A DNA stretch of 64,000 nucleotides from Virgibacillus sp. AGTR. GTDB taxonomy: Bacteria; Bacillota; Bacilli; Bacillales; Amphibacillaceae. This document shows, piece after piece, positions 1-8,422 of the stretch. Positions within the stretch are counted from its first letter, which is position 1; each line of letters begins with the position of its first letter. The notes under the pieces are model-generated. The model made no database searches and was not told the origin of the DNA. It saw only the letters and a program-made list of their open reading frames with translations. Location of the stretch: assembly GCF_016919725.2 (NCBI RefSeq), contig NZ_JAJERH010000007.1, positions 1 to 64,000 on the forward strand. The letters run 5' to 3'. Position numbers and translations under genes: made by a program.

Positions 1-121
1 AATGATAAAAACAAAGAAATTATTGTTAAAACTACTGATATTAATAGAGTAAAAATTAAAAAGTCACCGGATAAATTTAATTCATCAACTATTATATTCT
101 GGAGCAAATTCATATTAAGTA

Positions 122-616
122 TTAAAAGTCAAAACTTCCTTTTACATTAATACTTCTAGTATTTGTAGATGGAGTACGGATGGCAATATAATATGTACCA
201 CTAGGTCCACTTAGTATAAAACTACCACTTGTTTTCCTCCCACCACCATAACTTTTTGTCCAATATTGTTTACCATTACTAGCATTAATAAATCCCAATT
301 GTATTTTTTGTGATGAGGGCTTCCATGTAATTACACCAACCTTTACTTTTTGATTTTTTGACATTTTATACTTGTTTTTAGATTTAACATGTTTATTTAT
401 ACCAAGAGAAGAATGTCTAACCGTAAAATTTAAAAATGGTGATATTTTGTCAATAGATTCTTCTTCAGTAGATTGATCCTTTTCATACACAAGTTCAGCA
501 ACAAAATCTTCTGAATCCATATTCGAAATTGAACTTTCCTCTGCACTTGCAGTACCCACATGAAATAAAAACATAAAAAACAGACTAAACACCATTACAA
601 AATACTTCTTAACCAT
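122..616 (-). CDS. Secreted protein of unknown function, 164 aa
   Basis: The product starts with a clear Sec signal peptide (KKYFVMVFSLFFMFLFHV, then a likely cut after TASA at about residue 25). A charged linker follows, then a Gly/Ser/Thr-rich region of about 95 residues (VRHSSLGINK to KGSFDF) whose alternating pattern suggests a small beta-sandwich. I recognise no family. The start is supported by AAAAAGGAG nine bases upstream. A TATAAT box (704-709) and a perfect 26-bp palindrome (724-749) lie upstream and resemble the operator in front of the blaI-type gene at 4.5 kb, so I infer it belongs to that regulon. It is divergent from the secreted-protein genes at 1152-2816. Confidence 0.7.
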   Translation of the reverse strand: MVKKYFVMVFSLFFMFLFHVGTASAEESSISNMDSEDFVAELVYEKDQSTEEESIDKISPFLNFTVRHSSLGINKHVKSKNKYKMSKNQKVKVGVITWKPSSQKIQLGFINASNGKQYWTKSYGGGRKTSGSFILSGPSGTYYIAIRTPSTNTRSINVKGSFDF

Positions 617-703
617 TGTTACAGCTCCTTTTTAAGCATTACGTTTTACCTATCACTAGTAATTTAAAGATATAACCTATGAATAATTAACTGTGATTAT
701 TCT

Positions 704-749
704 ATTATAATAGCTATATTTACTTTTTACTACATGCATGTAGTAAAAA
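704..749 (-). promoter_or_regulatory. Promoter with perfect 26-bp palindromic operator
   Basis: Minus-strand -10 TATAAT is at 704-709. The -35 position (727-732) lies inside a perfect palindrome at 724-749 whose core is TACTACATGCATGTAGTA. This resembles BlaI/MecI operators (TACTACAnnTGTAGTA-like). Binding over the -35 would repress the gene at 122-616. Confidence 0.7.
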
Positions 750-920
750 TATATTCATTTAGCTTAATTTAAATATGCTTTAAAAAAGTATGGTGTAGTT
801 TTAATAAATAATCTAGACAGTCTTTAAATTTAGAATTAATTTATTAACGATTTATTAGCATCTTTTAAAAATATATTCGTTTTAACCTACGCTAAATTCA
901 TTCTTTTCGGATAGTTAATA

Positions 921-975
921 TTTACAATGAATCACTACGATGGTATAGTGATAATTGTACTACATAATTGTAGTT
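921..975 (+). promoter_or_regulatory. Promoter with two BlaI-type operator sites
   Basis: -35 TTTACA (921-926) and -10 TATAGT (944-949) are 17 bp apart. CACTACGATGGTATAGTG (933-950) overlaps spacer and -10; TACTACATAATTGTAGTT (958-975) covers the expected transcription start and matches 14 of 18 bases of the 724-749 operator core. This should drive the genes from 1152. The rest of the 617-1151 gap is AT-rich with nothing else recognised. Confidence 0.65.
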
Positions 976-1151
976 CATAATTTATTTTTGTAATTGCACG
1001 TCTTTTTAATTACAAAATGAATGTTGATAACTAGTAAAAGGAGGATAGTTAATAAGGAAACTTTAAACGAATGCTGATTTGGAAAAAGAAAATCATAGGT
1101 TTAAAGATTCCCGTAATTTTATTTATATTTATGTACAGGGGGGTTTTAATT

Positions 1152-1830
1152 TTGAAAAAATCACTCAATTCATTTTTAATTATTGGTTTATTATTAAGCC
1201 TAGTATCGCCTTTAAGCGTATTCGCATCTGATTTAACATCGGAAAATACAATGGAGAAAGATTATAAAGAATTGATGGGATTGATTGAGTCCTCAGAGAA
1301 AGAAAAATATAAAAAGGAAATGTCTAATTTAACTCAAGAAGAAATATATGAAAACTTTATAAAAATTGATCAAGAATATGATATTGGGGAGGAATTTTCA
1401 CTAAAAGACCAAGCTTTTATTGAAATGTATGCAAAACCAGTTGATTCTTGGGAAATAACTCCGTTTAAATCAAAGAAAATTTTCTGGATCTAAGAGTCAA
1501 AATGGCGTAACCGTTAAAGTAAGTGGTACAATTAAAGATGACATTCAAAATGTTATTAATCAAAGCTTTGGAGCTTCTAACCTAAAAACTAGTACAACAA
1601 AAGGTGCTAGTAAAGTAAAGTCTGTAAAAACAACAGTTCATCATACTGCTTATGGTTTAATAGGAAGTGGAGGAGTTGGTAAAGTATATTCTGGAACTTT
1701 ATCTACTTCTGGAAAAAATAGTACATTGACTGGAACTAAGAGATACACTGCAGTTGTTGCATATGCTTCAACATGGGCTACTGCTACTGTTAAGCATTCT
1801 GGCGGTACTTTTACAGTTACTCCAAAATAA
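1152..1830 (+). pseudogene. Secreted protein of unknown function, frameshifted
   Basis: A TTG start at 1152 after a GGGGGG-type ribosome site gives a signal peptide (KKSLNSFLIIGLLLSLVSPLSVFASD), then an acidic helical region. The frame stops at 1493. The next frame, entered by skipping one base in the AAAA run at 1476-1479, continues as GSKSQNGVTVKVSGTIKDD to AYASTWATATVKHSGG and stops at 1830. Together they would make about 225 residues: signal, helical pro-region, Ser/Thr/Gly-rich beta-type domain. An extra A in a homopolymer is the simplest explanation: a real mutation, phase variation, or a sequencing error. No family recognised. It is followed 18 bp later by a 40-residue membrane peptide. 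Confidence 0.65.
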
Positions 1831-1848
1831 AATAGTGGGAGGATAATC

Positions 1849-1971
1849 ATGTTAAGTAGTTTTGGGATTATTGGATCTATTATTACATTTTCAGTTTTGG
1901 CTGGATTAATTTATTTGTTTAGAAGACTGATTAAAAGAGATAATAGGAGTATGATTGACCAAAAAGAGTAA
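1849..1971 (+). CDS. Small single-span membrane peptide, 40 aa
   Basis: An ATG follows a strong GTGGGAGGATAATC ribosome site. The peptide has one hydrophobic span (FGIIGSIITFSVLAGLIYLF) and then a basic tail (RRLIKRDNR), predicting a single membrane helix with the tail in the cytoplasm. Its position just after a secreted-protein gene, and the same arrangement and length at 2694-2816, suggest a functional partner such as an immunity or export helper. That role is inference. Confidence 0.65.
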   Translation: MLSSFGIIGSIITFSVLAGLIYLFRRLIKRDNRSMIDQKE

Positions 1972-1991
1972 CTTAAAAGTTACTCTTTTTG
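1960..1991 (+). terminator. Rho-independent terminator
   Basis: Inverted repeat AAAAAGAGTAACTT/AAGTTACTCTTTTT with a tight loop overlaps the stop codon of the 40-residue peptide gene, with a T-run in the 3' arm. It separates the first secreted-protein module from the second. Confidence 0.85.
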
Positions 1992-2166
1992 ATTAGGTAT
2001 CATTATAATTATGATAAGAACTAATGTATCTTGCATAAAACCCCTCCTAAGTTCTATTTTTGGGTAGAAATTAGGGAATAAGAAATATTTAGGGGAATAA
2101 ACTCATTATATAGTATAAAGTAAGGATAAGTGGCCAAGGATTTAGCCTAAATAAAGAGAATGGTTT

Positions 2167-2679
2167 ATGACGGAGAAAAAAACGAAGTCTTTTTGTCGTG
2201 AAGAATCCCCCTGCTACACTTTTGAGGCCAGTCGGTGCACCCTTGTAGTTGCCGAAACTGCTACTGTTAGTGAAAATAACTCAGATTCTGTTTCAACATT
2301 TGCTAGTCATAGTGGAAAACCAGGTTCAAAATGGAAAACAAGTTATAAAGTTGACTTTTGGGGAGTTTATTTAGCGGCCAGAGCTAAAATAAATACTAGT
2401 TACACAGTCAACAAAGGTTCTATTAAGATAACTGACGTTACTAAAGCTGGCACAAAAGCAAATGCACCAACAACCATAGTAGTTGACTCTTTGAAAAAAG
2501 TCATTAATAATAAGAAAACAGTAAAAAGTCGAGGTTCATTTACTAAAGTAAATGGGATAGTTATTGGAGGTCAACCAATCGGGTTTAGCGATTCTTTTGA
2601 TTTAACAACTACTTTAAAAATCACAAGTGCTACTAATTCAAAAGTGAAATGGACTTCTAGCTCTAAATCTTCAAAATAA
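2167..2679 (+). CDS. Exported-type protein of unknown function, 5' end probably altered
   Basis: The open frame codes for 170 residues. From about residue 30 (ETATVSENNSDSVSTFAS onward) it looks like a mature secreted Ser/Thr/Lys-rich beta-type domain, similar in style to the frameshifted protein at 1152-1830. The first 30 residues are not a signal peptide and the ATG at 2167 lacks a good ribosome site. The original signal-peptide region appears replaced or lost, so this may be a pseudogene. A 40-residue membrane peptide follows after 14 bp. The 1972-2166 gap shows no operator like the one at 724-749. Confidence 0.5.
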   Translation: MTEKKTKSFCREESPCYTFEASRCTLVVAETATVSENNSDSVSTFASHSGKPGSKWKTSYKVDFWGVYLAARAKINTSYTVNKGSIKITDVTKAGTKANAPTTIVVDSLKKVINNKKTVKSRGSFTKVNGIVIGGQPIGFSDSFDLTTTLKITSATNSKVKWTSSSKSSK

Positions 2680-2693
2680 AAGGAGTTATTTTT

Positions 2694-2816
2694 ATGGGTG
2701 GTTTTGAACTCAATACGTTCTTTTCTCAAATAATATTTGTAGGGGTAGGGGCTTTAATAGTTTTTTTCCTATTTCGTTATTTGTTAACTAAAAAAAGAAA
2801 AAAAAAGAAAAGATAA
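2694..2816 (+). CDS. Small single-span membrane peptide with poly-Lys/Arg tail, 40 aa
   Basis: ATG after AAAGGAG with 8 bp spacing. The peptide has one hydrophobic helix (QIIFVGVGALIVFFLFRYLL) and ends in TKKRKKKKR, giving N-out/C-in topology by the positive-inside rule. It has exactly the same length and relative position as the peptide at 1849-1971, but little sequence identity. I read the two as equivalent partners of adjacent secreted-protein genes. Function unknown. Confidence 0.6.
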   Translation: MGGFELNTFFSQIIFVGVGALIVFFLFRYLLTKKRKKKKR

Positions 2817-2865
2817 AACTTCAACCCTTTGTGAGCAAATGTTGCTGGTAGATAGATAATACTAA

Positions 2866-2908
2866 AAAGAAGGCGACTTATGCAATGCATGTATAAGCCG
2901 CTTTCTTT
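2866..2908 (+). terminator. Terminator hairpin
   Basis: Arms AAAGAAGGCGACTTAT (2866-2881) and ATAAGCCGCTTTCTTT (2893-2908) pair almost fully. It ends the accessory cluster and could serve both strands, lying between the 2816 stop and the converging sensor gene. Confidence 0.75.
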
Positions 2909-2977
2909 GAGTATTAAAGAATATGATTTCTCGTATAAGTGATTTATTATAATTAATGATGTTTTACTTTATTCTAT

Positions 2978-4129
2978 TCATTCGTCTTCTAAAACTATTT
3001 CACCATTTTCAACTTGTTTAAGAATTTCTTCCCAATCTTCTCTCGAGAATTTAGATTCATCAGATTTCTTGACTGAATTTATTTCATAATTACTCCCTTC
3101 TTCTTGTTCTTCTGTTGACTTGTCAATACCAGCTTTAAAAAGCACCACTTCTGATACTCTATTTATATTTTTGTGAATTAAGTTAGCACTTACAACACTA
3201 CCGCTTCCGATAGCTATAAATATTATGAAGGATAGGAATACAATAGATTTACTAACCTTTTTTGCTTCTAATATTCTCAATAATCTTTTTCTTAAATTGA
3301 CTTGACCTGTCGCAAAAAAAGTACCCAAAAGATATGGGTTTGTCTCTTGATTGGAACGGTAGATCATATTTAAAATGGTTTCACCATATTTTTTTCTCTC
3401 TCTGTGAGACATTTTTATCACGACATCTTCATCGCAGGAAAGTTCACTCCATTTATTGATTTCTTTTTGTAATATATAAACAAATGGGTTATACCAATGG
3501 AGTATGGTTGCGAGCAACGCAGCTCTCTTTACCCATAAATCTTTTCGCTTATAATGTATTAATTCATGCTTAATTATCATTTCTAACTCATCTGGTAGAA
3601 TATCATGCATCGGTAATACAATAGTAGGCTTAAAAACACCAATAATTATGGGACTGATATTTAAACGACAAAATACGATTTCGACAGGAGAGTTTAGATT
3701 CATATTCTCCATCTGTTTGCGTAGAACATCGTATACAATATTTTCTTTTGGAACAGAAAAGCAACTCGCTTTAAGTTTTTTCGTGAATCGCATAAATATA
3801 TATATAAATCTTAAACTACTAATCGTTACGCCAATAACCCAAACTACAACAACGACTTGAAAAAAAGCCGTTGTTAAAGATAAGACAGGTTGAAAAATAA
3901 TAGATTGTTCTATATATTGAGTAGTCACATCTTCGCTGTTAATTACCGATAATAAATCTGACACTAGAAAGACTGGAACAAGAAAAAAGAATAAAGATAA
4001 TTTTCTATTCCGATAATACCACTTTGATGAAAGAGTCCTTTTAGAAAGATATGTTATAAATAGTGAAAATAACAATACACTGCTTCCTGCTATAGATAGA
4101 CCAATAATTATAGTTAGATATTCCACCAT
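2978..4129 (-). CDS. BlaR1-type M56 sensor metalloprotease lacking a penicillin-binding domain
   Basis: Integral membrane zinc protease of the M56 (BlaR1/MecR1) family, about 383 aa. I see N-terminal membrane spans, the zinc motif HELIH followed by YKRKDLW near residue 190, a downstream ELSCDED that can supply the third ligand, and a last span near residue 305. In true BlaR1 the last span leads to a beta-lactam sensor of about 250 residues; here only about 65 mostly acidic residues follow, so the signal is probably not a beta-lactam. Known role of the family: on stimulation, trigger cleavage of the partner repressor. It starts 8 bp after the repressor stop; the ATG after GTAGGTTTGATA is preferred. 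Confidence 0.85.
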   Translation of the reverse strand: MVEYLTIIIGLSIAGSSVLLFSLFITYLSKRTLSSKWYYRNRKLSLFFFLVPVFLVSDLLSVINSEDVTTQYIEQSIIFQPVLSLTTAFFQVVVVVWVIGVTISSLRFIYIFMRFTKKLKASCFSVPKENIVYDVLRKQMENMNLNSPVEIVFCRLNISPIIIGVFKPTIVLPMHDILPDELEMIIKHELIHYKRKDLWVKRAALLATILHWYNPFVYILQKEINKWSELSCDEDVVIKMSHRERKKYGETILNMIYRSNQETNPYLLGTFFATGQVNLRKRLLRILEAKKVSKSIVFLSFIIFIAIGSGSVVSANLIHKNINRVSEVVLFKAGIDKSTEEQEEGSNYEINSVKKSDESKFSREDWEEILKQVENGEIVLEDE

Positions 4130-4137
4130 TATCAAAC

Positions 4138-4512
4138 CTACTTATCATCAAACCATTTTTTGATTTCATCCAATTCTTCAGAATTAATATCGTCATCATA
4201 AAGTGTCGCTAAAAAATTTTTCACAGATCCTTTATACATCGTATTTAAAAAACCCTGTGCTTTCTTTTTTTCGTACATTTCAAACGATAATCTTGGGCTA
4301 TAAACATTTGACCGTCCTTCTCTCTTTACAGCAAGCATCCCTTTATCTTCTAACCTAGAAAGAAAGGTTGCGATTGTTTGCCCTTTCCATTTTTTACCTT
4401 CTTTTACTAGAAAAACTTCCAATAATTCATTCGATTTAAAGGGACGATTTATTTTCCAAATTTCTTTCATTATTTTCATTTCCGTTTCAGATAGACTTTG
4501 GAAATCATTCAA
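4138..4512 (-). CDS. BlaI/MecI/CopY-family transcriptional repressor
   Basis: About 124 aa with a winged helix (LSETEMKIMKEIW, KGQTIATFLSRLEDKGMLA, REGRSNVYSP) and a C-terminal dimerisation region, the standard BlaI layout and size. The start is set to TTG at 4512 because GAGGTG lies six bases before it; a GTG three codons upstream overlaps that ribosome site. Family role: a dimer binds TACTACAnnTGTAGTA-like palindromes and is cleaved through the partner protease. The matching operator upstream suggests autoregulation, and similar sites at 724-749 and 933-975 suggest its targets are the neighbouring secreted-protein genes. Confidence 0.88.
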   Translation of the reverse strand: MNDFQSLSETEMKIMKEIWKINRPFKSNELLEVFLVKEGKKWKGQTIATFLSRLEDKGMLAVKREGRSNVYSPRLSFEMYEKKKAQGFLNTMYKGSVKNFLATLYDDDINSEELDEIKKWFDDK

Positions 4513-4543
4513 TTTATACACCTCGTATTAAATTGCATTTTAC

Positions 4544-4588
4544 ATTATAATTAATTACTACATCAATATAGTAACATGCTACTATATT
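4544..4588 (-). promoter_or_regulatory. Promoter and operators of the blaI-type gene
   Basis: Minus-strand -10 TATAAT is at 4544-4549. TACTACATCAATATAGTA (4556-4573) matches 15 of 18 bases of the palindrome core at 724-749 and overlaps the expected -35. A second inverted repeat, AATATAGTA/TACTATATT, spans 4565-4588. The layout indicates repressor autoregulation. Confidence 0.65.
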
Positions 4589-4648
4589 ATCTTTAATCTT
4601 GTCAATTTGCTATATTTCATAGTTTATAAGAGCTTAACTATAATATGA

Positions 4649-5845
4649 TTATTCTGGATGCATAAAAAATGTAATTACTGCACCGATTGCTAATATTAAG
4701 CCACCCATTCCAAATGCATAAGAGTAATCTCCACTTATTGTTCGAAGGTACCCACCAAGGAATACACCTAATGCAGCAAATATTTGGTGAAGAAGCCAAC
4801 TAAACCCTAGAATACTTCCCATTGCATTTTTACCAAATCGATCACCAATAATCCCCGTAACTAGTGGAATGATTGGCATTGATGAAACTCCATAAACAAT
4901 TGAAAATACATATAACTGCCATATCCCCGGTGATATTGCTAGCCAAATAAATGCTATCAGGCGAATAATATAAAGCATAATCAACAAATTTTTCTTTCCA
5001 AAATTACGAGTTAATTGTCCTGTTACAAACATTGAAACTGCACTCGCAAAAGCAGCAATACCAAGTAATTGCCCCCCAAGTGAGGTATCCCCCCCTAGAT
5101 CAACTGCGAAATTTGGAAGATGCATGGTTACTAAGTATAGTGTAAAACCACAAGAAGCAAATCCTAGGCTTGCAATCCAAAACTGACCACTTCTTAATGC
5201 CTCTGACAATTTTGCACTCTGAGGTGGTGAAAATATTGCCGTAGAATCTCCATCTGGCAATTGACCAACATCTTCTGGATTATTTTTAACTGCAAATAAA
5301 ACTAAAGGCACGACAACAACCAGAATAATCATTCCAAGTACCACAAATGCAGAGCGGAAACCAGTGTTAGCAATTAGATAACCAGTTAAAGGTAATAGTA
5401 AAAGTTGACCAATGTTCATTCCCATTGAACTTCTTGAAAGCATTTTAGCCCGTTTCTTCACAAACCATCTTGATACTAATACTGAGTTGGCCATAGAACC
5501 ACAGCCTGCAAAACCAATTGCGGTAAAAACCCCATAATAAATAAAGAATTGCCATACTTCAGTGATTGTTGCGGATAACAAAAATGCAATTCCCATTAAC
5601 GCTGCACTACTAGCAATTACTGACTTAGGACCAAACCTATCAATCAATTTTCCCATAATCGGTTGGAAAATTCCCCAAGTTATCATATTGAGAGACACTG
5701 CTAAACTAAGTGTTGTTAAGTCCCATCCGTAGGTGTTATTCAGTGGAGCAAAAAATTGCCCTGCTGTCAGGTTTAGACCAAATGCTCCCATAAGTGTGAT
5801 AAATGTAATCAGAATAACTCGATTACCCATAAAAGAATGTTGCAA
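4649..5845 (-). CDS. MFS transporter (oxalate/formate antiporter-like)
   Basis: About 398 aa, 12 predicted membrane spans of the major facilitator superfamily. The loop 2-3 motif is present (GKLIDRFGPKSV). The sequence resembles the monocarboxylate/OxlT-like branch of MFS, but the substrate cannot be read from sequence. A TTG start at 5845 is chosen because AGGAGGAG lies five bases upstream; the ATG ten codons earlier would place the ribosome site inside the gene. It is divergent from the CGNR regulator at 5980, with shared GGTTAAT repeats between, so that regulator probably controls it. Confidence 0.8.
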   Translation of the reverse strand: MQHSFMGNRVILITFITLMGAFGLNLTAGQFFAPLNNTYGWDLTTLSLAVSLNMITWGIFQPIMGKLIDRFGPKSVIASSAALMGIAFLLSATITEVWQFFIYYGVFTAIGFAGCGSMANSVLVSRWFVKKRAKMLSRSSMGMNIGQLLLLPLTGYLIANTGFRSAFVVLGMIILVVVVPLVLFAVKNNPEDVGQLPDGDSTAIFSPPQSAKLSEALRSGQFWIASLGFASCGFTLYLVTMHLPNFAVDLGGDTSLGGQLLGIAAFASAVSMFVTGQLTRNFGKKNLLIMLYIIRLIAFIWLAISPGIWQLYVFSIVYGVSSMPIIPLVTGIIGDRFGKNAMGSILGFSWLLHQIFAALGVFLGGYLRTISGDYSYAFGMGGLILAIGAVITFFMHPE

Positions 5846-5892
5846 AAAATCTCCTCCTATAAATGTATTAACCATTAAATTTCGGTTTTAAT

Positions 5893-5948
5893 GGTTAATA
5901 CAATATACAATTATAATTAACCTGTCAAGTATGCTACAATAGGTTAAT
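5893..5948. promoter_or_regulatory. Three GGTTAAT half-sites between divergent genes
   Basis: GGTTAAT (5893-5899), ATTAACC (5916-5922) and GGTTAAT (5942-5948) give two overlapping inverted repeats in the divergent promoter region. Likely binding sites of the adjacent CGNR-type regulator. Confidence 0.5.
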
Positions 5949-5979
5949 ATTAAAATAATTATAGAAATGAGGGATTATA

Positions 5980-6561
5980 ATGGTTAGTGAAAGTAACTTC
6001 CCACTAATTTCTGGTTATCTATCTTTGGATTTGGTAAATACAGAAGTGGTTCGGAATGGAACCCGATATGATTTGTTGACAAAATCAGAAGATGTAATTA
6101 ATTGGGTGAATACTTTACTAGAGGAGAATATTCTTCTAACTAAACAAATTTCAGATAATGTACAAGAGTGGTCTAGTCAGGTCTTACCAATCTTAAGAGA
6201 GATTCGCTCATTTTTGCGTAAGGGATATGAAAGTTTAGCCGATGGAGAAGATCTTTCTGAAGGGTGGATTAATTATCTGGAAACAGTTATTGAAAAGGCA
6301 CCATTCACTTATAAGGTAGAAAATAATGAGTTAATACCTGTCCCCATTGGACAACCATCTAATGTTTTAATTTCGCTAGTAGCACTGGATGCTATTAAAC
6401 TTTATACAAGCAATAAATTATCCTCTATACATCGTTGTGCGAATCCAAGTTGCGTTTTATTGTTTATCGATACTCGTGGAAGGCGAAAATGGTGTTCAAT
6501 GAGAATATGCGGAAATCGTGAAAAAGTTACTCGCTTTCAAAGGCGACAAAAACAAGAATGA
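5980..6561 (+). CDS. CGNR zinc-finger (ABATE-domain) regulator
   Basis: 193 aa. The N-terminal region has the ABATE pattern (SGYLSLDLVNTEV near residue 12). The C-terminus holds the CGNR zinc finger: CANPSCVLLFIDTRGRRKWCS then ICGNREKVTRFQRR, with four cysteines placed to bind zinc. Such proteins are treated as DNA-binding stress or metabolite regulators. ATG follows GAGGGA. Divergence from the MFS gene at 4649-5845 suggests it controls that transporter. Confidence 0.82.
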   Translation: MVSESNFPLISGYLSLDLVNTEVVRNGTRYDLLTKSEDVINWVNTLLEENILLTKQISDNVQEWSSQVLPILREIRSFLRKGYESLADGEDLSEGWINYLETVIEKAPFTYKVENNELIPVPIGQPSNVLISLVALDAIKLYTSNKLSSIHRCANPSCVLLFIDTRGRRKWCSMRICGNREKVTRFQRRQKQE

Positions 6562-6986: not shown

Positions 6987-8422
6987 ATGCATATGAGATT
7001 TTTTGAGATAGTCGTTATTGTCTTCAACCTTTTGCTGATCGGTTGGATTCTAGTTGCCAAGAAAAAGCCTGTGCCTTGGTTGCTTATTGGTTTCGGTGTT
7101 TCCGCCATTCTAATACTGATACATGGAGTTATTGAAGGCTGGCGCTGGCAGATGATTCCGGCTTATGTTATGACAGTAGTTCCGTTAGTGGCTGTAGCCG
7201 GTAGATTGCTGTTCAAATCCGAACAGTCTGCTGAGCGAGTGGTGACAAAAGCATCCCGCGTAAAACGAATAGCACTGATAACGTTAGCTGTAATCTATTC
7301 TTCCGTGGCCGTTGCGCTGCCGCTTATACTTCCGGTCTTCACCTTTGAGGAGCCGACAGGTCCGTACAAAATCGGCACCGTTACCTACGACTGGAAGGAT
7401 CAGGCGCGGGATGAAACCTTCACGCCAGATCCGGGTGACAAGCGAGAGTTAATGGTGCAGATCTGGTATCCTGCAGATGCTCAAGCAGAAGGAGAAACAG
7501 AGCTCTATTTTTCTAACCCAGATGTGTTTGTGGAGGGGTATAGTAAGCTTCTGAATATGCCGAAACTGTTGTTTACGACGTTCGCTTATGTTAAAACACA
7601 TGCCATTGAGAACGCGGCGATTTCCAATCGGGAGCCATCTTATCCGGTTCTTATTTTCTCGCATGGATTTAGTGGGCATAAGAATCAGAATACTTTTCAG
7701 ATCGAGCATTTAGTGAGTCATGGATATATAGTGGTGGGCATAGATCATACGTACAGTAGTACAGCATCTGTTTTTGCTGATGGTCGTGTTGCAAACTTTG
7801 TGCCACAAGATACCGAATCAATCGCTTACTTGGATAAAGCGAATGAAGGCTGGGTAGCAGATGCCAAGTTTGTGCTGGATCAAGTAGAGAAGCTAGCCAA
7901 TAATGATCCGGATCGTCGTTTTACGGGTCGCATGGATATGAGCAATGTAGGGATGTTTGGCCACTCTTTTGGAGGGGCGACAAGTGCACAGATGCTAATG
8001 TCGGATTCTAGAATAAAGGCTGCAATTAATATGGCATTTTATATGGAAAACAACGGATTCCAGCAGAAGGGATGAAAAAGCCCTTTATGATGATGAGTGC
8101 CGATGACTCCATAGAGGTGAAAAACACCGCAGATACAGTGTCTGTCCAAATTATAGAGGAAACGTTACCGCGGTATAAACATGTGGCTGTAGGTGGAAAT
8201 TACTGGATGAAAATAAAAGACATGAAGCATATGGGCTTCTCTGATTTATATCTGTTTTCACCAATATATGAAAAACTGGAGGGGGTTGATGCCCGAAAGG
8301 CTCATCGGCTCATTAACGATTACACGCAGGATTTCTTCGATCATTATTTAAAGCAGCAGCCATTTAAGCTATTGGAGCAAAATATGGGTGAACACCAGGC
8401 GTTTGAGCTGGAAAAAGGCTAA
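6987..8422 (+). pseudogene. Platelet-activating-factor acetylhydrolase-like alpha/beta hydrolase, frameshifted
   Basis: The first frame (to 8075) has N-terminal membrane spans, an oxyanion motif (VLIFSHGFSGHKNQ), an acidic loop and the nucleophile elbow GHSFGGATSAQ. It derails at 8031: the expected NMDGILYGKQRIPAEG is only readable if four bases are added. The second frame (8072-8422) continues with KKPFMMMSADDS and a C-terminal His region (YKHVAVGG). The site reads ATGGC where ATGGATGGC is expected, so loss of one ATGG unit by slippage explains the break. An intact gene would encode about 478 residues of a membrane-anchored PAF-AH/lipase-family esterase. Start after GAGGAGG. Confidence 0.8.

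What the first reader, a model, noticed from the sequence alone, without database searches (positions are those of the whole stretch)
122..4588. BlaI/BlaR1-type regulon controlling secreted proteins of unknown function
A BlaI-type repressor and M56 sensor protease without a penicillin-binding domain sit next to divergent secreted-protein genes and two 40-residue membrane peptides. Operator cores upstream of the repressor (4556-4573) and of both secreted-protein transcripts (724-749, 958-975) share 14-15 of 18 bases. A known signalling pair therefore seems to control an unrecognised exported system, perhaps an antimicrobial, envelope-stress or competition module. The sensed signal should bind the short acidic tail of about 65 residues or the membrane part.
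Basis: partly seen in the sequence, partly recalled or inferred. Interest (0 to 1): 0.75.

Follow-up and report, generated by a model that had tools for sequence, protein, structure and literature searches.

The report
Penicillin-type switch controlling bacteriocin-like cassettes
A repressor and membrane protease related to the switch bacteria use to detect penicillin, but without the penicillin-binding part, appears to control plasmid-derived genes for secreted proteins paired with tiny membrane peptides that look like antibacterial toxins and their immunity peptides, although both toxin genes look broken in this genome.

Summary
BlaI (4138-4521) and a 385-residue M56 protease of BlaR1 type without a penicillin-binding domain sit beside secreted-protein genes. 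The promoter at 921-975 repeats the two-operator geometry of relatives' blaI promoters; none expected per 64 kb.

New here. The secreted genes belong to two undescribed families that travel as cassettes: a secreted protein, then a 30-40-residue one-helix membrane peptide. Cassettes lie on small plasmids and in prophages. Peptide and secreted protein diverge together (Mantel r 0.88, 79 of 40,320 permutations). Best reading: narrow-spectrum bacteriocins with immunity peptides under inducible repression (0.5). Activity is untested. Both are broken here: one frameshifted, one with its N-terminus replaced and a plasmid-like scrap in the replaced stretch.

The whole gene set is not conserved: the cassette relatives examined lack BlaI/M56, and M56 relatives carry other cargo. 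The last 36 residues of M56 form a mobile module (75% identity to Evansella against 29% in the core; absent from closer cores). A new variant of a known regulatory kind.

The parts
4138..4521 (-). BlaI-type winged-helix repressor, 127 aa
   Evidence: Pfam Penicillinase_R E=1e-23; sequence match to solved BlaI and MecI
2978..4135 (-). M56 membrane metalloprotease, 385 aa; four predicted helices, HELIH zinc motif plus downstream Glu; no penicillin-binding domain; extracellular tail of about 69 residues
   Evidence: Pfam M56 E=4e-43; invariant H190, E191, H194, E231; Foldseek to BlaR1 8exr TMt 0.69
2978..3094 (-). conserved C-terminal sensor tail of M56 (SNYEINSVKKSDESKFSREDWEEILKQVENGEIVLEDE plus stop codon)
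   Evidence: 75% identical to Evansella tail while cores are 29% identical, 0 of 305 core windows as high; also in Kurthia and G039
4556..4573 (.). operator O1 in the blaI promoter
   Evidence: one mismatch to the consensus; genome-wide search
4576..4605 (-). candidate blaI promoter TTGACA-18-TAGCAT
   Evidence: consensus scan; such matches are no commoner than chance in this A+T-rich region
724..749 (.). operator O2, 26-bp perfect palindrome between the divergent secreted genes
933..950 (.). operator O3a, dyad CACTACGATGGTATAGTG in the spacer and -10 of the right-hand promoter
   Evidence: geometry
958..975 (.). operator O3b, about 25 bp downstream of O3a
921..949 (+). promoter TTTACA-17-TATAGT (extended -10) of the right-hand operon
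122..616 (-). secreted protein C, 164 aa with signal peptide and acidic pro-region; no convincing relative found
3..113 (-). start of a hydrophobic protein directly after gene C, cut by the contig end
   Evidence: open-ended ORF MNLLQNIIVDELNLSGDFLIFTLLISVVLTIISLFLS
1152..1830 (+). secreted pre-pro-protein A; reading frame broken near 1474-1482
   Evidence: pieces match Priestia plasmid protein L004:1834-2556 over both halves; profile search
1849..1971 (+). membrane peptide a, 40 aa, one helix, basic C-terminus; candidate immunity peptide for A; intact
   Evidence: 41-55% identical to peptides beside close A relatives
2100..2250 (+). foreign DNA (limits approximate) that replaced the 5' part of gene B; 2146-2196 is 88% identical to a 2,048-bp P. 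megaterium plasmid
   Evidence: single copy in genome
2167..2679 (+). secreted protein B remnant: mature domain kept, signal peptide and pro-region lost
   Evidence: 48-52% identical to full-length 277- and 290-aa secreted proteins
2694..2816 (+). membrane peptide b, 40 aa; candidate immunity peptide for B; intact
   Evidence: 30-47% identical to peptides beside B relatives L106 and L107

Best explanation
The locus is an inducible BlaI/M56 switch that has captured bacteriocin-like cassettes. At rest BlaI binds paired TACTACA-N-TGTAGTA operators and silences its own operon, the right-hand operon (secreted A, peptide a, secreted B, peptide b) and the left-hand secreted gene C. A signal outside the cell, most likely detected through the conserved C-terminal tail, activates the M56 protease, which destroys BlaI and releases all three units. 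A and B would be Sec-secreted pre-pro-proteins whose C-terminal domain attacks the envelope of close relatives; each cognate 30-40-residue membrane peptide protects the producer. In this genome A and B are both broken, so what remains functional is at most the switch, the two putative immunity peptides and protein C. Shown by sequence: families, operators, cassette structure, paired divergence, plasmid and prophage carriage, gene breakage. Inferred: repressor binding, proteolytic induction, toxin and immunity activity, the role of the tail.
For: Operator specificity: 3 of 4 near-perfect sites in the genome are here. Promoter geometry (TTKACA, dyad in the spacer, second dyad about 25 bp on) at 921-975 is the same as at the blaI promoters of Kurthia, Siminovitchia, Evansella, G039 and G196, and at a promoter facing the divergent lipoprotein genes in G276; 0 in 40 simulated windows. 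Conserved M56 catalytic residues and BlaR1 fold. Peptide directly downstream of A in the window and in 9 of 11 other loci, and of B in 3 of 3. Peptide and protein identities covary, r=0.88, 79/40,320. Cassettes on small plasmids or replicons with RepL or Mob genes and beside terminase or holin-endolysin genes. Peptides a and b are intact while A and B are broken.
Against: No member of either secreted family matches a known bacteriocin profile in Pfam or NCBIfam. Retention of the peptides is weak evidence because they are about six times shorter targets than the secreted genes. The Mantel test does not separate immunity from any other physical partnership. The cassette relatives examined lie without BlaI/M56. 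Two A relatives (G483, pBRLA07) have no recognisable peptide. The single-sequence fold of A's domain was unusable (pLDDT 37).
Confidence: 0.5

Rival explanations
1. The regulation is real, but the secreted proteins are protective or structural envelope proteins made under cell-wall stress, and the membrane peptides anchor or chaperone them. The switch would be an envelope-stress response rather than a weapon.
For: Several M56 relatives sit next to lipoprotein pairs, once with an ABC transporter (L053, L047, L050), more like defence or stress genes. BlaR1 relatives respond to cell-wall-active drugs (general knowledge).
Against: Cargo-only presence on small plasmids and in prophages, sporadic distribution (about 10 of 399 genomes) and frequent decay fit weapon-immunity cassettes better than housekeeping stress proteins.
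Confidence: 0.25
2. The small membrane peptide is itself the toxic or pore-forming partner, and the secreted protein is its partner or delivery factor: a two-component membrane-active system.
For: One hydrophobic helix with a Lys-rich C-terminus resembles small membrane toxins; paired divergence fits any physical partnership.
Against: The peptides have no secretion signal and stay intact where the secreted partner is broken, which would be harmful if they were toxic to the producer.
Confidence: 0.12
3. The cassettes landed next to an unrelated BlaI/M56 pair and the operators near them serve only the pair; the secreted genes are not regulated by it.
For: The cassette relatives examined are not beside BlaI/M56.
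Against: The operators lie 3.6-3.8 kb from the blaI operator, in the promoters of A and C, with full regulatory geometry at A, and are absent elsewhere in the genome apart from one site.
Confidence: 0.08
4. The locus works as an autoinducing circuit in which a secreted product of the locus is the signal for its own M56.
For: Secreted products and a surface receptor in one regulon is a common arrangement.
Against: The same tail occurs in Kurthia, G039 and Evansella, where none of these cargo families was seen nearby; no significant resemblance between tail and cargo pro-regions.
Confidence: 0.05

Closest known systems
BlaI-BlaR1 / MecI-MecR1 beta-lactam induction systems
   Same: Winged-helix repressor, M56 protease with HExxH and BlaR1 fold, paired TACA/TGTA operators at the repressor's own promoter and at effector promoters
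   Different: No penicillin-binding sensor domain; a 36-residue tail module instead; effectors are secreted proteins and membrane peptides, not a beta-lactamase or PBP. The genome has a separate true BlaR1 (603 aa, with transpeptidase domain) on contig C35 and no such operator was seen beside it.
BlaI-M56 pairs of Clostridioides plasmids (pCD6 family)
   Same: M56 pair without a penicillin-binding domain on small plasmids, followed in pCD6 and in one of two pairs of pESS10701d by a small secreted protein; described as of unclear significance in PMC6807378
   Different: The secreted protein is a peptidoglycan-binding-domain protein, unrelated to A, B or C; no membrane peptide found after it; different tail
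Geobacillin 26 / alicyclobacillin 24 class III bacteriocins
   Same: Sec-secreted proteins of about 240 residues from Bacillota (PMC13176240)
   Different: No NCBIfam match to that or any bacteriocin family at E<=1; those are helical with a C-terminal helix, whereas A's C-domain is Ser/Thr/Gly-rich and looks beta-rich
BLB8/JUQZ-1 family bacteriocin (NF053514)
   Same: Small secreted proteins of Bacillales; very weak match to the 134-aa secreted neighbour in L047 (E=0.028)
   Different: 14.7 bits against a cut-off of 40; A, B and C do not match

Membership tests
BlaI/MecI/CopY repressor family | Penicillinase_R winged-helix domain | tested here: met
   Pfam E=1e-23, above cut-off
BlaI/MecI/CopY repressor family | TACA...TGTA dyad operator at its own promoter | tested here: met
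   4556-4573 and dyads at blaI promoters of seven relatives
BlaR1/MecR1 beta-lactam sensors | M56 membrane zinc protease domain | tested here: met
   Pfam E=4e-43; BlaR1 fold match
BlaR1/MecR1 beta-lactam sensors | extracellular penicillin-binding (transpeptidase-like) domain | tested here: not met
   absent; protein ends about 69 residues after the last helix; present in the genome's other copy
BlaR1/MecR1 beta-lactam sensors | cleavage of the cognate repressor after induction | not testable with these tools
   needs biochemistry; the MecI Asn-Phe dipeptide that I recall as its cleavage site aligns with Thr-Leu in this BlaI
bacteriocin plus immunity peptide cassette | secretion signal on the effector | tested here: met
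   hydrophobic signal peptide by inspection in A, C and intact relatives; lost in B
bacteriocin plus immunity peptide cassette | cognate small membrane protein directly downstream | tested here: met
   A: window plus 9 of 11 other loci; B: 3 of 3; paired divergence r=0.88
bacteriocin plus immunity peptide cassette | killing of related bacteria and protection by the peptide | not testable with these tools
   no assay available
geobacillin 26 family | match to a curated family profile | tested here: not met
   no NCBIfam match to a bacteriocin family at E<=1 for window pieces or relatives

The most novel reading that the evidence does not exclude
BlaI/M56 pairs without a penicillin-binding domain are a general class of inducible switch with exchangeable extracellular tails that mobile elements use to control secreted weapon-immunity cassettes, from Bacillales to Clostridioides plasmids.
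Probability: 0.25. Interest if true: 0.72.

Novelty: new variant of a known kind. Interest (0 to 1): 0.52.

Why it matters
If right, the best-studied antibiotic-sensing switch of Gram-positive bacteria has a sibling without the antibiotic sensor that controls secreted competition proteins, which would help explain why BlaI/BlaR1-like pairs are common on plasmids without any resistance gene (a puzzle stated in PMC6807378). It also defines two undescribed families of secreted proteins with matched 30-40-residue membrane peptides, small enough to test directly in laboratory Bacillus.

Tried and rejected
Geobacillin-26-like toxin: no NCBIfam match, different predicted make-up. Known bacteriocin, phage or defence families: nothing significant in Pfam, NCBIfam, PHROGs or PADLOC for A, B, C or the peptides; weak one-helix hits are composition. 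M56 tail as a mimic of the cargo pro-region: alignment scores not above shuffles (p 0.08-0.55). Fold of A's C-domain from a single sequence: pLDDT 37, not used. Viral contigs (IMG/VR) and phage records: no relative of A or C. Relatives of C: none convincing in plasmids or 310 genomes. RNA families at 1-6000: none. DNA at 2060-2260 as a repeated element of this genome: single copy. Conservation of the Asn-Phe cleavage dipeptide of MecI (recalled, not looked up): an Asn-Phe exists nearby but does not align. Literature searches for BlaI/M56-controlled bacteriocins found none; the library is open-access only. Peptide retention as proof of immunity: rejected as weak because the peptide genes are small targets.
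Full report
What was checked. The window is bases 1-64000 of contig C183 (117,609 bp) of a 4.7-Mb draft genome, so the locus lies at the very start of a contig and its left flank is unknown. Gene calls and families: BlaI at 4138-4521(-), M56 at 2978-4135(-), secreted protein C at 122-616(-), membrane peptides at 1849-1971 and 2694-2816. The M56 has the zinc motif HELIH and the third ligand Glu, both invariant among relatives, and its AlphaFold model matches S. aureus BlaR1 (8exr TMt 0.69), but it has no transpeptidase domain. The same genome carries a true BlaR1 of 603 residues with transpeptidase domain plus a second BlaI on contig C35, where no operator of the type seen here was found. The two systems look separate.

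Operators. TACTACATNNNTGTAGTA with at most one mismatch occurs at four places in the genome: 728-745, 958-975, 4556-4573 and one unrelated place. At two mismatches the genome has no more hits than the reversed control, so specificity rests on the close matches. 724-749 is a perfect 26-bp palindrome, the only perfect one of 18 bp or more in 64 kb. The right-hand promoter has TTTACA at 921, a dyad in the spacer and -10 (933-950), TATAGT at 944-949, and a second dyad at 958-975. The same arrangement stands before blaI in Kurthia, Siminovitchia, Evansella, G039 and G196, and in G276 it faces the divergent lipoprotein operon; none appeared in 40 simulated 64-kb windows. Dyads also precede blaI in G010. 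Binding itself was not tested. The promoter scan alone finds no excess over chance, so the argument is the joint geometry, not the hexamers.

The secreted genes. Gene A starts at TTG 1152 after a strong ribosome-binding site, has a signal peptide and a pro-region with the motif YDIGEEFSLKDxxFIxxYA, and shifts frame near 1474-1482. Its two halves both match one 240-aa secreted protein of the 5-kb Priestia megaterium plasmid pBM-Cp-1-9, so it is one broken gene. A four-row profile found the family in about ten of 399 genomes of the order, and a more remote member lies on Brevibacillus laterosporus pBRLA07. Intact members lie on plasmid pBM-Cp-1-9, on pBRLA07, beside terminase genes (G504), beside holin and endolysin genes (G454), and in G315 and G483. 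Gene B's mature domain is 48-52% identical to 277- and 290-aa secreted proteins: one on a 4.6-kb contig with a Mob gene and a weak RepL match, one beside RepL and Mob genes. In the window its first part has been replaced, and 51 bp inside the replaced stretch are 88% identical to a 2-kb Priestia plasmid. That is direct evidence of plasmid DNA in the locus. Gene C has no convincing relative.

The membrane peptides. Directly after the secreted gene stands a 30-40-residue peptide with one helix and, in most, a basic C-terminus: in nine of eleven other A loci, in the window, and in all three B loci. Within A, peptides and secreted C-domains split into the same subgroups; across eight pairs their identities correlate at r=0.88, reached by 79 of 40,320 permutations. 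The B peptides form their own group (30-52% with each other). Window peptide a belongs to the A group and b to the B group, so each sits with its partner. Several relatives with a broken secreted gene (G317, G295, G200, G465, G429 and the window) keep an open peptide frame; this fits immunity, but the frames are short, so it is weak evidence.

The sensor tail. After the last helix the M56 has a disordered linker and then about 36 residues predicted as a small strand-helix-helix-strand unit (pLDDT about 70-80). This unit is 75% identical in Evansella although the rest of the protein is 29% identical, and no core stretch of that length is as similar (0 of 305). It is 61-64% identical in Kurthia and G039. 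M56 relatives from Siminovitchia, G010 and G276, with 46-49% overall identity, do not have it. The unit therefore moves independently of the core and is the best candidate for the sensing part. Its conservation across loci with different cargo argues for one common signal rather than a locus-specific one. It does not resemble the cargo pro-regions.

Generality. The regulator pair carries different cargo elsewhere: lipoprotein pairs with an ABC transporter (G276), a 134-aa secreted protein (G010), none recognised (Kurthia, Siminovitchia). Clostridioides plasmids carry BlaI-M56 with a secreted peptidoglycan-binding-domain protein directly after M56 in pCD6 and in one of two pairs of pESS10701d; a survey of such plasmids found BlaI/BlaR1 genes on most pCD6-like elements and called their significance unclear (PMC6807378).

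Verdict. Known regulator architecture, new sensor module, and new candidate effector families. Regulation of A-a-B-b and C by this BlaI: about 0.9. Cassettes as bacteriocin plus immunity: about 0.5. In this genome the weapons are probably dead, and what is left would be immunity plus protein C.

Noticed in passing
L109:374-1447 (plasmid pCD6): In pCD6 the blaI and M56 genes are joined into one reading frame by an internal deletion, compared with the separate intact pair in L112:4039-5411.
   Followed up: partly
L056:1498-1875 and L057:1498-1809: In two species of one genus, a degenerate M56 remnant keeps the full conserved tail; both lie at the same chromosomal place, near a cell-wall-hydrolase-like gene and a probable spore-coat gene (identified by eye).
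   Followed up: partly
L047:8975-11241, L053:7688-9951, L050:3889-6166: An undescribed pair of lipoproteins (no Pfam match for the first, weak beta-propeller matches for the second) recurs beside these BlaI/M56 pairs, once with an ABC transporter and BlaI-type operators facing it.
   Followed up: partly
L047:7753-8157: A 134-aa secreted protein stands divergent to BlaI/M56 with operators between; very weak match to the BLB8/JUQZ-1 bacteriocin family (E=0.028).
   Followed up: partly
L045:3208-5852: An ABC transporter that looks BceAB-like (by eye) sits convergent to the tail-bearing BlaI/M56 pair of G039.
   Followed up: no
window 3-113 (-): A hydrophobic protein starts directly after secreted gene C and runs off the contig; it could be C's membrane partner.
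   Followed up: partly
window 6987-8422: Two adjacent reading frames (6987-8075 and 8072-8422) look like one hydrolase gene split by a frameshift, a second broken gene near the locus.
   Followed up: no
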